Source: Liolophura sinensis
Lineage: Eukaryota; Mollusca; Polyplacophora; Chitonida; Chitonidae
Direction of reading: 5' to 3'
NCBI RefSeq assembly: GCF_032854445.1
Contig: NW_027017953.1
Coordinates: 314,501-378,500, forward strand
DNA: 64,000 nucleotides
Both the position numbers and the translations under genes were made by a program. Numbering within the stretch: the stretch's first letter is position 1; every line of letters starts with the position of its first letter. Below are positions 24,101 to 30,100 of this stretch, piece by piece. The notes under the pieces are model-generated. The model was not told the DNA's origin. It saw nothing but the letters and a program-made list of their open reading frames with translations, and made no database searches.

Positions 24101-27100
24101 TAAGCCGCGCCATTATACTGATAAGGGTCAAGTATACACAATAACAATTATGAGTGAGTGAGTGAGTGCTTGGGGTTTAACGTCGTACTCAACAATTTTT
24201 CAGTCATATGACGACGAAGGAATCATTAGGGTGCATGTATGTGTAATGTGCCTCCTTGTAGCAGGACGGATTTCCATCACTCTTTTATCTAGTGCTGCTT
24301 CACTGAGACGCTTTACCAAAGGCAAATAAGCCGCCCCGCCTGAGCCATTATACTGATACGGGTCAACCAGTCATTGCACTATCCCCTTCATGCTGAACGC
24401 CAAGCGAGGAAGTTACAACTTCCTCTTTTAAAGTCTTAGGTGTGACTCGATCAAGGATTGATCCTGGATCTACCGGTCCTGAAATGGATGCCCTACCAAC
24501 TGTGCTATCAGGGCCGGTCGAATGAATAAAAAGGCATTTACAGTATATGAAATGGACACCAATCAAACATCAAATAGCGCCAACTAAACACCAAATCATA
24601 TTACAGATATTCATTCTAACCTGTGAAATACTGAAACTTACTGTTTGCAATGGACTCCAAAATCTTCAATTTTATTGAGTGGTATGGACTGATACTCTGA
24701 GGGTCCTTCATCTGGCGGCTTGTACCCCTGAAATTACAGACATGCCTGATAAATAACTGCTAAAACAGTTCAATGATTCAACCTTTAACCATCTCATTTT
24801 GCACAGATACGCATGAACTAACAACCCATCAAACATGCCATTTGACACAATGGGCCACCATAAGCAAAGTTTATAATGTGGCCCCATTCCCAGTGAAAAA
24901 AGATGTTCCAAAAATGTGCAGTAGTGACTGCTGTCAATCACTGTAGAAAAAAACATTACAGAAAAATAATGATTATCGTAACAACAGTAATAATAATTAA
25001 TGACAGCCATGGCAACCTCCATAAAAGCAGCAACAATATTTCTTTTGTTGGCATTATTGCCATCATTATCATCATTAGTGTTGATTGGCAGGATCATGAC
25101 TATCATTACTATATATATATATATATATATATACATACATATTTGTATAAATATTTAATAATACTAATTAATACTACCACTACTACTTTTAACAATACAT
25201 GTAATAATAAAGTAATATGAATATCCATACTAATAAGAAAAGTAACGAAAAATGGGTTCACATGGGTCACTGGTTATGTTAGATATACTGGTTAGTATAG
25301 ACTAAAGAAATCTATAGACTATAGACTACTAATTGTACTAAAGAAATCACACTCACATGCCATCAACAAGACCCTCACATACCATCATTAACATCCTCAC
25401 ATTCACAGGTGCACCTTAATTAACATCAGTTAACATCCAGTTATTAATTGCCACAAATGCCCAACAATTACATGCAACTCCTTAGGGGGCCTCTGTGCCT
25501 CTGTTGGTTAGCCTACTTGTGCAGCGTAATGACCCAAGAGCCCTTCACCAATGAGGTCCAGCTCATGCTGGCTTCCTCTCTGGCCGTGCGTGGGAACGTC
25601 TGCCAACAACCTGCAGATGGTCATGGGTTTCCCCTGGGTCCTGCCCTTTTTCCTCAGACCATAATGATGGTTGCCGTCATATAAGTGAAATATTCTTGAG
25701 TGTGGCGTTAAAAATTCATGGAAACGAAAGCCTACTTCCCACAAAAAAAGGCTTGGCCACTCACTCAGTACTGCTTAGTAAACATTCAACAGAGTTAATT
25801 GTCCCTAGACTTGAGTTGTGAGAGTTCACATTGTGGCTAATGTGGCACTAGGCGCTTGTACTTTGTTGCCACAGCGGTCTCATGAGAAATGGACCTTTTT
25901 CATCCTCTCTATGTACAGTCAGCCTGCATTGCTATCGGCCACAATGGACAGGAAGTACCACTGACAATGAATTACATGTAGGACAGAAAGCCAATCAAGG
26001 TCTTAGAACAAGGAAGTCATTTATATGAAATTCGGATAGTGAGATTCATTTGGACGCCAGGCTGATGTGGAAGTTGTATTTAACACATGCTGCATTGTAC
26101 TCTTCACGCAGGAGAGATAACTCAAACTGACAAAGTTTAGACTACTCAGTTCCCTCCCTTCTTTCTTCATAGTTTACTGTCGGATACCTGAATCATTCAG
26201 TGACAGTTCATATATTTTAGACAAAAAGGTTGAGGGATTACGATAATTTTTACTTTACAAATTATATCTGCAAACAGAAACAAGAAACAGTAAACAACAA
26301 AATTTATTTCATGAAATGCCATTTATACTAAAACTATTACACATAAATTAGTTCTCATAGCAGAAACTGTTGGGAACTAAAAAAACATTTCCCGCCGTTT
26401 CCCAGGTCAAAAGTACATGGAACCGAAAAAGTGTTTCACAGCAAATTCCTAAATCCTCATGCCTGCCATTTATTGTAGTCATGAACTTTCACTTACATTA
26501 CCAACTGTAAATTTAGGTGCTATGTGATTGGGTAAACCATAATAAAGAAAGAACTCACCTTGGGGAATGTTCTGAAGGCACCCAGGTTGACTTTACAGCA
26601 TGTACTCACCTTGTGGAATGTTCTGAAGGCTGTCACCTTGACTTTACAGCATGTACTCACCTTGGGAAATGTTCTGAAGGCACACAGGTTGACCTTACAG
26701 CATGTACTCACCTTGGGGAATGTTCTGAAGGCTCTCACCTTGACTTTACAGCATGTACTCACCTTGGGGAATGTTCTGAAGGCACACAGGTTGACTTTAC
26801 AGCATGTACTCACCTTGGGGAAGGTTTGGAAGGCGCCAAGGTTGACGCATGTACTCACCTTGGGGAATGTTCTGAAGGCGCCCAGGTTGACTTTACAGCA
26901 TGTACTCACCTTGGGGAATGTTCTGAAGGCGTCCAGGTTGACTTTACAGCATGTGCTCACCTTGGGGAATGTTCTGAAGGCGCCCAGGTTGACTTTACAG
27001 CATGTACTCACCTTGGGGAGTGTTCTGAAGGCGCCCAGGTTGCCTTTACAGCATGTACTCACCTTGGGGAATGTTCTGAAGGCTCTCACCTTGACATTAC

Positions 27101-30100
27101 AACATGTACTCACCTTGGGGAGCGTTCTGAAGGCTCTCACCTTGACTTTACAGCATGTACTCACCTTGGGAAATGTTCTGAAGGCTCTCACGTTGATGCA
27201 TGTACTCACCTTGGGGAATGTTCTGAAGGCTCTCACGTTGATGCATGTACTCACCTTGGGGAATGTTCTGAAGGCTCTCCCCTTGACATTACAACATGTA
27301 CTCACCTTGGGGAATGTTCTGAAGGCTCTCACCTTGACTTTACAGCATGTACTCACCTTGGGAAATGTTCTGAAGGCTCTCACGTTGATGCATGTACTCA
27401 CCTTGGGGAATGTTCTGAAGGCTCCCAGGTTGACTTTGCCTGCAGAGATGGTTCTAACTGGATCCACCTGAGATCAGAAAAATACATGTATGCACTTTAC
27501 ACATATGCACCTTACCAAAGAAACATCTGCATCAAGTATTTTATAAATGACAAGGTCTCTTTGATGTTGGCTTACTACTGAAGTTTAACTGTTTACACAA
27601 ACACTCTTGCTAAGCTAAGTCTTGACAAGGTCTCTTTGACGTTGGCTTACTACTGAAGTTTAACTGTTTACACAAACACTCTTCCTAAGCTAAGTCTTGA
27701 TCACTTAATCTTCTTTGTGATGTTTCTGAAGTTTAATCTGTGCCAAGAAGTTTACCATTCATATCTGTCATTCAAATTATCGGTCCAAGCGGTTACAAAT
27801 AGAAACTGTCATCTTTTCATGTTCACTGTAACTGGATGGCCAGACTCACCACTATGGCTACAAAGGGTTCCTGAAACTGCTGGTTTAACATCTGTGTGCT
27901 GACATCAATCCCTGATAACCAGCAGCCATAGCCTGGGTGACTGTGGTACCAGCCTATCACATTCTCCAGGCGGCCCACCTACAATGCCGACATCCATACA
28001 GTAATAAATTGTAGCCAACTACAAAACTACCAATGATGGTTCTCTACAGAAAATCAGATCGGTAGCCGTAGTCTAGGTGACTGTGGTACCATTCTATCAC
28101 ATTCTCCAGACAGCCCCCCTACAATGGCATCCCATGATGATGTTTGGGTAAATAGCCCAGCAAACATTTCAGGAGATCTTAAGTGGCAAATATGAACTTA
28201 TGTTATGATAAAGTAAAGTGCTGACCAAACTCTAATAATGTTTAAAACGGGCATTATTATAACTTGTCAGTAAAATACACCAGTAAATGCATGGAAGGGT
28301 AACCAGGTTGTTAAAATTATCTATATATATTATCTATACAAAATGAGAAGCAAAACTCAACTTCATCTTACATCTTACAAGGACCAGATAATTTTGCCCA
28401 TGCATAACTTTTTTCTGGCTAAAATACTTCAACCCTTAAAAGAGATGCTGGCATGTTATATCAAACTATATATGGTCATTTAATCATGCTGCTAATAACC
28501 TTATCTTACAGAGAAAGATGATAGGATCAAACAAGTAGCGAGACTTGATAAAACCACAACCCAAGTATAGGATCATGCAATCACAGTGAGACCAGCAAAC
28601 GAGAAGGCAATGTGATTCTCACATACCTGCTTGGCTAATTCTGTGTATGCAGCCATGTACTCATATGCCTGAGCCTGAGCGTTCACTCGTGTTTCTGTTC
28701 CTTCCACAGGGAGTGCAAAACTGTCCATGACAACCATGACATTACCATCCACTTTGCCCAGCAACAGTCCCATGACCTCTAGGTTACCACCTGACCTAGC
28801 ATGCATCACCATCTTCAACAGGGCCAAGGCAGAGATCTTGATGAACTTGAAATAATGAGGACTGTGTAGTACAGAAAACACTTGTAAAACCACAAGCAAC
28901 ATCTACGACAAATAAAGCAAACAGAGAAGAAACGTGTTCTATTCACGGTAACAGACAGTAGTTAATTTTGGCTTAACAGCATTGGTCAGGGTTTGACACA
29001 CGTGGTGTTCACACAGCAAGATGGATAGGAATGCATCTTTCTTGGATAGGAATAACCCTTTCTTGTATCTTTGAAAGAGGAAACCACGGAGGAGTACCAT
29101 ACTATCTAACAATAAATGACAAAGCTTGAGATTTTGTGGATTTCTTGTTAATTGATCAAATATTCATTCTTCAGTCTTACCTAAAGAAATTTCTAATACT
29201 GAACTTAGCATCAAAAATCTTAGTTGCTTTCTACCATAGTGTAATTACAAACTAAAAGAGTTTCATTGGGGCAATACTTTGTACTGAAACTGGACTTACT
29301 GTACAACTCCATCAGTGACACACTTGTTTAGCCAGGATCAAACATGAGTGTTACAGTGCCCAACATCATCATACTCATCCTATCTTTCTTGAGTATATAC
29401 AATCTAGTCTAACAGTAACACTTTGAAATGCAGTGTTCCTGAACTCACTTCTGTCCCTGAGGGTTGCATGTGACATCATCACTCTGGGAGACCAATAGCC
29501 AGGCAGCCACACTGGAGTACTTTTAACATGGCTTGGTATAGCTGCACTACTTTAATATGGCTGCCAGAAGTGGGTCATGCAACCCCTCTAACCCATACTT
29601 TGGTCTGTATCAGTGCAGTACATGGTGACTACTAATCAACAGCTTGATGCAGTAAGTTTTGCCCCTTTGAGGTCTTCGAAGTTAAAAGAATAGCATTTCA
29701 GAATTCTAAGCAAGCTTGGCATAAAAGACAACTAACATGAAGCTCTACAACCTAGGACCAGTAATAAAATAGGTCCACATCATTTAAAACATGATGTTCT
29801 TTATTTGCGTTGATGGCAACGCTACATTTAAAAGATACCTTAAACACATAACGATGTTGTATATGGATTATATGTGCATTAACAGAGATTAATTTGGTTC
29901 AAAAATGTTTGTTTATCCATGTCATAAAAGAATCCATTTGGTAGATGTTTCTAATCTTTGATAGCTGTGGAATATATCTCTCACACTGGGCCACACAGAG
30001 TGTTGGGGGATTACATTGAGAAACTGCTTCTAATGCATCAGATCGACGATAAACAACATTTACCGCATCTTCACACGTGCATTAAAATTTCCCTAGCGTA

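What the first reader, a model, noticed from the sequence alone, without database searches (positions are those of the whole stretch)
26520..27467. COPS5 exon 4 end and its 5' splice site amplified into 18 consensus donors, in frame
Seen directly: 17 extra copies of the end of exon 4 plus AAG|GTGAGTACATGC follow the real exon. Units are multiples of 3 and nearly every donor is intact, so any donor would give COPS5 with 0-17 extra modules such as [17 protein letters not shown] inserted after about residue 188, just before the variable Ins-2 region of the MPN domain. Usual splicing to unit 1 restores the conserved protein. Inference: either isoforms of variable length exist, or a mechanism suppresses 17 perfect decoys.
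Basis: partly seen in the sequence, partly recalled or inferred. Interest (0 to 1): 0.88.

Follow-up and report, generated by a model that had tools for sequence, protein, structure and literature searches.

The report
Splice-donor minisatellite in mollusc COPS5
In this mollusc the end of one exon of a conserved gene, with its splice donor, has been copied 17 times into the following intron; the same kind of array sits at other genes of the genome, so the extra splice sites are more likely ignored decoys than a source of protein variants.

Summary
Minus strand, 27401-26559: 17 tandem units (13 of 51 bp, 4 of 45 bp) follow COPS5 exon 4; all are in frame and stop-free, each ending AAG|GTGAGT (one AAG|GTGAGC). 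Splicing at the first donor gives a gapless match to a solved CSN5. The genome, a mollusc by its haemocyanin, holds many such arrays: triple donor motifs 1,399 against 395 for the reversed motif, with no comparable excess for an acceptor motif. COPS5 exon 6 has a second array (50 bp, out of frame); kinesin, OGDH, Mot1-like, ankyrin and Fe-hydrogenase-like genes carry them too. In 10 of 14 arrays measured no decoy could give an open in-frame product, yet 126 of their 300 decoys match U1 at least as well as the real donor. Choice of the first donor is therefore probably general, and the open frame of exon 4 probably chance. The kind is known: 'mirages' of amphioxus, the human CBS 31-bp VNTR. Not found in my limited paper searches: a mollusc case, the genome-wide scale, the donor bias. 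No RNA evidence for or against isoforms was available.

The parts
27402..27467 (-). COPS5 exon 4 (66 nt), the original of the array; ends FPK|
26559..27401 (-). Array of 17 units (13 x 51 bp, 4 x 45 bp): exon-4 end plus first intron bases; 17 decoy donors, open in frame
27396..27404 (-). Real exon-4 donor AAG|GTGAGT (first of 18)
26738..27332 (-). Stretch with four extra internal donors AAG|GTGAGA (intron side at 27332, 27140, 27089, 26738)
24642..24727 (-). COPS5 exon 5 (first base 24727)
27850..27978 (-). COPS5 exon 3
28627..28861 (-). COPS5 exon 2
21688..23677 (-). Second COPS5 donor array: end of exon 6 plus its donor, 50 bp x about 40, out of frame; GT kept in 9 of 38 decoys
53752..54303 (+). 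Third donor array: 96-bp units from an exon end of a Sec7/BIG-like gene (ARFGEF, name recalled), donor TAG|GTGAGG

Best explanation
It is a minisatellite seeded at an exon-intron junction (a 'mirage'). A stretch of exon 4 plus the first bases of intron 4 was duplicated in tandem and expanded on the intron side. Shown: the structure, block duplication inside the array, and that the same kind of array sits at donors of other genes here. Inferred: slippage or unequal exchange as the cause, and that the spliceosome uses the first donor (for instance by exon definition of this 66-nt exon), so that the 17 decoys leave with the intron. The open frame of the array is probably a coincidence of a 51-bp unit taken mostly from coding sequence.
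For: Anatomy and frame. Units 1-3 and 5-7 are one 147-bp block repeated with 3 differences (read from the alignment). First-donor splicing gives a gapless CSN5. Genome counts: MAGGTRAGT triples 1,399 vs 395 reversed, singles 33,494 vs 24,251; acceptor-like TTTTWCAGR triples 367 vs 325, singles 61,798 vs 48,508. Of 120 kinesin matches examined (of 132 found), 5 have an array that includes exon end and donor, 2 one that includes the acceptor. Of 18 donor arrays fetched from contig C1, I searched the exon peptide of 8, and 5 of these had a Pfam or PDB match up to the first donor. In 10 of 14 donor arrays no decoy gives an open in-frame product, yet 126 of their 300 decoys match U1 at least as well as the real donor (117 of 290 in 9 arrays if a coiled-coil array without database support is left out). 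In amphioxus, Adh3 data and globin RT-PCR were taken to suggest that mirages do not disturb splicing (PMC3087553, passages).
Against: No RNA data for this species. Nine of the 14 arrays are not an unbiased sample: the finding itself, two seen beside it in the window, and six from C1 picked because their donors are perfect. In the arrays not chosen by donor sequence, decoys are mostly weaker than the real donor (five kinesins 11 of 87, COPS5 exon 6 1 of 38 at least as strong), so tolerance may partly come from decay of decoys, which COPS5 exon 4 does not show.
Confidence: 0.8

Rival explanations
1. Used isoforms: some transcripts splice from decoys and give COPS5 with 1-17 extra 15- or 17-residue modules after position 191.
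For: All 17 decoys are in frame and open and 16 of 17 match the real donor base for base; pN/pS among units in this frame is 0.52.
Against: An antisense frame has pN/pS 0.40. Openness is nearly given, since 12 of 17 codons come from the exon. Other arrays hold decoys as strong that could not be used without breaking the frame. The best-matching solved CSN5 chain has no insert there.
Confidence: 0.08
2. The decoys help: an array of U1 sites next to a short exon recruits U1 and reinforces exon 4 recognition or blocks premature polyadenylation, while splicing still happens at the first donor.
For: Consensus donors persist in several arrays, and the donor motif but not the acceptor motif is enriched in arrays.
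Against: COPS5 exon 6, with a weaker donor (6 of 9 matches), has decoys that mostly lost GT (29 of 38), opposite to what is expected if decoys help. Donor columns of exon-4 units are not significantly more conserved than the rest.
Confidence: 0.08
3. Assembly artefact: a collapsed or expanded repeat.
For: Tandem repeats are error-prone, and the window lies in a 1.46-Mb contig (C14).
Against: Units differ at 18 of 51 columns in a patterned way. Tandem arrays of many kinds fill 34% of the window (38 merged blocks), and donor arrays occur on much larger contigs as well (C1, C9, C10, C11 of 33-96 Mb).
Confidence: 0.03

Closest known systems
'Mirages' of amphioxus (Adh3, globins BflGb6/BflGb9, TnC; similar repeats in PGBD5)
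   Same: Minisatellite-like tandem duplications that span an exon-intron boundary; units carry splice signals; regular splicing reported undisturbed; unit number varies between haplotypes (PMC3087553, passages; PMC3902484, passage).
   Different: Here a mollusc; many arrays in one genome, biased to donors; COPS5 exon 4 is in frame and open in all 17 units. The paper cited for the term (Canestro 2002) was not held; I know it only through papers that cite it.
Human CBS 31-bp VNTR, c.1444_1467+7(16_21)
   Same: By its name, a unit of the last 24 nt of an exon plus 7 intronic nt, 16-21 copies (PMC2630376, passages).
   Different: 31 bp is out of frame; it is a known length polymorphism, whereas copy variation here is unknown.
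Intron gain by tandem duplication of AGGT sites; repeats at exon-intron boundaries of human paralogues
   Same: Tandem duplication that copies or creates splice signals (PMC4974935, search listing and start of abstract only; PMC2812944, passages).
   Different: No new intron is formed here; the copies lie inside an existing intron.

Membership tests
Mirage (boundary-spanning minisatellite) | Tandem units span an exon-intron boundary | tested here: met
   units start in coding exon 4 and end past its donor
Mirage (boundary-spanning minisatellite) | Minisatellite-size unit (10-160 bp in the amphioxus cases) | tested here: met
   45 and 51 bp; range
Mirage (boundary-spanning minisatellite) | Units carry splice signals | tested here: met
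   17 of 17 decoys keep GT, 16 of 17 all 9 donor bases
Mirage (boundary-spanning minisatellite) | Regular splicing undisturbed | not testable with these tools
   no RNA data; only indirect support from arrays with unusable decoys
Mirage (boundary-spanning minisatellite) | Copy-number instability between alleles | not testable with these tools
   one assembly, one locus; a 147-bp block duplication is visible inside the array
Alternative 5' splice-site isoform generator | Transcripts from more than one donor | not testable with these tools
   no transcripts available
Alternative 5' splice-site isoform generator | Insertions keep the reading frame | tested here: met
   17 of 17 decoys 3n and open
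Alternative 5' splice-site isoform generator | Coding constraint on the inserted modules | tested here: inconclusive
   pN/pS 0.52 in frame, 0.40 in an antisense frame

The most novel reading that the evidence does not exclude
In this mollusc splice donors are preferred birthplaces of minisatellites and acceptors are not; 5 of 120 kinesin matches carry one at the donor. Once born, an array's decoys are graded by selection: where a decoy would break the frame they decay below the real donor (COPS5 exon 6, four kinesins), where it is harmless (COPS5 exon 4, the ARFGEF-like exon) they stay strong. Decoys would then be used at a low, costly rate, and the genome would carry scores to hundreds of natural donor-competition experiments. 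Against the second half: the Fe-hydrogenase-like, Mot1-like and OGDH arrays keep many perfect decoys that are out of frame or run into stops, although these arrays were picked for perfect donors.
Probability: 0.3. Interest if true: 0.78.

Novelty: new member of a known kind. Interest (0 to 1): 0.58.

Why it matters
How the spliceosome picks one donor among identical neighbours is an old question, tested (as I recall) mostly with a few engineered sites. Here conserved genes carry up to 92 natural decoys of their own donor, in and out of frame, inside one genome. Sequencing the transcripts would show directly whether the first donor always wins. The donor-versus-acceptor bias, if it holds for distinct arrays, would also say something about how minisatellites start; and such arrays should mislead gene predictors that score donors alone.

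Tried and rejected
Coding constraint on modules: no frame-specific signal. Special conservation of donor columns: not significant. Bias of donor arrays to multiples of 3: 7 of 14 main periods are 3n against 4.7 expected by chance, not convincing. 'Decoys survive only in frame': suggested by window and kinesin arrays, weakened by the C1 arrays. Haplotig comparison for copy number: impossible, only one COPS5 locus was found.

Names and limits. CIAO3, BTAF1/Mot1 and ARFGEF are recalled names; the calls give an Fe-hydrogenase C-terminal domain (41, 42), a SNF2 domain with best chain 'Helicase-like protein' (41, 44) and a Sec7/BIG1-like HUS domain (63). That chain 4f7o_A is human, and 'Ins-2', are recalled. 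The exon at the ARFGEF-like array had no Pfam match and no PDB match below 0.001 on its own; its name rests on upstream exons. Of the 18 C1 arrays, 16 came from the lists; three two-donor places were not fetched. Peptides of 8 of the 18 were searched; 10 were judged by eye not clearly coding and not searched. L105, L110 and L120 had no Pfam match; the L105 and L110 arrays start about 8-12 nt past the donor and were not counted as donor arrays; L120 was kept although its exon is unconfirmed. Kinesin sample: 12 of 132 matches were not examined; L097 (second match in the array of L020) and L031 (array purely intronic) were not counted; L059 (one decoy) and L044 (about 6 nt of exon in the unit) were; arrays near a 3' end without overlap (L003, L051, L052) and near a 5' end (L018, L044, L091) were listed but not read, so the counts are lower bounds. 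The last two ARFGEF-like donors (54220, 54311) fell below the similarity cut. For COPS5 exon 6 the phase was not fixed; all three gave no open in-frame decoy. The reversed-motif control keeps base but not dinucleotide content. Pattern counts are overlapping matches, so large arrays weigh more; the first 100 donor places fall in 15 arrays within the first 12.2 Mb of C1, the first 100 reversed places in 15 arrays within the first 89.7 Mb, counted by eye from listings whose ordering I could not verify (searches listed plus-strand places only).

Papers opened that did not bear on it: PMC12783039 (passages: intronic minisatellites of earthworm metallothionein genes), PMC3862624 (passages: simple repeats in cone-snail introns).

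Full report
Check of the observation. The array is as described. On the minus strand COPS5 exon 4 (27467-27402, 66 nt) is followed by 17 units, 13 of 51 bp and 4 of 45 bp, up to 26559; all are in frame and open; 17 of 18 donors read AAG|GTGAGT and one AAG|GTGAGC; four units hold a further AAG|GTGAGA. TRF finds it with score 1243, and the one DNA match in the genome is itself. Splicing 27402 to 24727 gives a peptide that aligns without gaps to positions 50-220 of CSN5 chain 4f7o_A at E 4e-107; the insertion point is after position 191. One COPS5 locus was found.

What the frame is worth. All lengths are 51 or 45, so the 'multiple of 3' is one or two events. Twelve of 17 codons come from the exon and are open by origin. 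Two readings of the opposite strand are open over 354 and 311 codons, against 317 for the COPS5 frame. Variation among units gives pN/pS 0.52 in the COPS5 frame but 0.40 in one antisense frame, so there is no frame-specific constraint. Donor columns vary less than the rest, not significantly (1 of 9 against 17 of 42; P 0.09). A 147-bp block of three units is repeated with three differences (units 1-3 and 5-7 in the alignment), a sign of minisatellite turnover.

The same gene has a second case. The array at 21688-23677 (50 bp x about 40) translates to the end of COPS5 exon 6. Its unit is out of frame and 9 of 38 decoys keep GT. A third array in the window (53752-54303, 96 bp) is made of the exon end and donor of a Sec7/BIG-like gene. 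Tandem arrays cover 34% of the window, in 38 merged blocks; not all are built on splice sites (for example 50840-51887, read).

Genome-wide. The genome (609 Mb, 632 contigs) is a mollusc by inference: it has eight tandem Haemocyan_bet_s domains on contig C8. Three donors MAGGTRAGT spaced 20-50 bases apart occur 1,399 times against 395 for the reversed motif; pairs 2,286 against 651; single sites 33,494 against 24,251. For the acceptor-like TTTTWCAGR the triples are 367 to 325 and singles 61,798 to 48,508. So the donor motif, not the acceptor motif, is over-represented in arrays, with the caveats that matches, not arrays, are counted, that the control keeps base but not dinucleotide content, and that the acceptor consensus is looser.

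Sample by homology. Kinesin motor exons gave 132 matches, of which 120 were examined with flanks. After reading the sequences, 5 have an array that includes exon end and donor (L020 73 bp; L037 34 bp; L044 71 bp, with about 6 nt of exon; L062 63 bp; L059 30 bp, one decoy) and 2 an array that includes the acceptor (L007, L005). L097 is a second match in the array of L020 and L031 is purely intronic; neither is counted. The numbers are lower bounds, since some near-by arrays were not read. Of 18 donor arrays taken from contig C1, exon peptides of 8 were searched and 5 had a database match up to the first donor: ankyrin, Fe-hydrogenase C-terminal domain, Mot1-type helicase, 2-oxoglutarate dehydrogenase and antistasin.

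Decoy accounting. For 14 donor arrays I aligned units to the real donor and counted matches to MAG|GTRAGT (a first version is). In 10 no decoy gives an insertion that is both a multiple of 3 and stop-free: COPS5 exon 6, four kinesins, ankyrin, Fe-hydrogenase-like, Mot1-like, OGDH, and a coiled-coil array whose exon is unconfirmed and whose unit also contains an acceptor. These hold 300 decoys, 126 of them with GT and a match count at least that of the real donor (117 of 290 without the coiled-coil array), 67 in the Fe-hydrogenase-like gene. If decoys were used freely, these genes would be broken. The economical reading is that the first donor, next to the recognised exon, is used and the rest leave with the intron; COPS5 exon 4 then needs no special mechanism. 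Four arrays have open in-frame decoys: COPS5 exon 4 (17 of 17), ARFGEF-like (3 of 3), L059 (1 of 1) and antistasin (9 of 19).

Against this reading. There are no RNA data. Nine of the 14 arrays are a chosen sample: the finding, two from its window, six from C1 picked for perfect donors. In arrays not chosen by donor sequence the decoys are mostly weaker than the real donor (five kinesins 11 of 87; COPS5 exon 6 1 of 38), while COPS5 exon 4 and the ARFGEF-like array, both open, keep strong ones (16 of 17, 3 of 3). That contrast could mean selection against usable out-of-frame decoys, hence some decoy use. The sample is small and the contrast was seen after looking.

Comparison with the known. 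Boundary-spanning minisatellites are described in amphioxus as mirages, with Adh3 data and globin RT-PCR taken to suggest normal splicing (PMC3087553, passages; PMC3902484, passage). The human CBS 31-bp VNTR is named c.1444_1467+7 with 16-21 copies, that is 24 exonic and 7 intronic bases per unit (PMC2630376, passages). By structure the COPS5 array is a member of that kind. My searches listed no title on donor arrays in molluscs; I opened passages of two listed papers on intronic repeats, and the passages shown do not describe boundary arrays. The library lacks most subscription journals. Older experiments on duplicated donors, which I recall but did not find, should be consulted.

Verdict. 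Real and striking, but a new member of a known kind; the genome-wide donor bias and the graded decoys are the parts worth following.

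Noticed in passing
window 21688-23677: Second donor array in COPS5, from exon 6 (50 bp x about 40), out of frame; 29 of 38 decoys lack GT.
   Followed up: yes
window 53752-54303: Donor array of 96-bp units at an exon of a Sec7/BIG-like (ARFGEF, name recalled) gene, open in frame for three decoys.
   Followed up: partly
window 28126-28064: Decayed partial copy of COPS5 exon 3 (63 bp, 87% identical) upstream of the real exon 3.
   Followed up: no
window 27548-27700: 75-bp tandem duplication (two copies, 97%) in intron 3, just upstream of exon 4.
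   Followed up: no
L120/L126 (C1:1904042-1905176): What reads as a whole small exon with its acceptor and donor in a 126-bp array, 10 decoy donors: a possible set of tandem alternative exons; no Pfam match.
   Followed up: partly
L121 (C1:5471300-5475900): Fe-hydrogenase-like gene with 92 decoys of 40-bp period, 67 as U1-matched as the real donor and 23 sharing a GT-to-CT change.
   Followed up: partly
L007 and L005: Arrays that copy a kinesin acceptor and exon start: acceptor-side cases also occur.
   Followed up: partly
window 1-64000: 34% of the window is tandem arrays (38 merged blocks); origin of most of them not examined.
   Followed up: no
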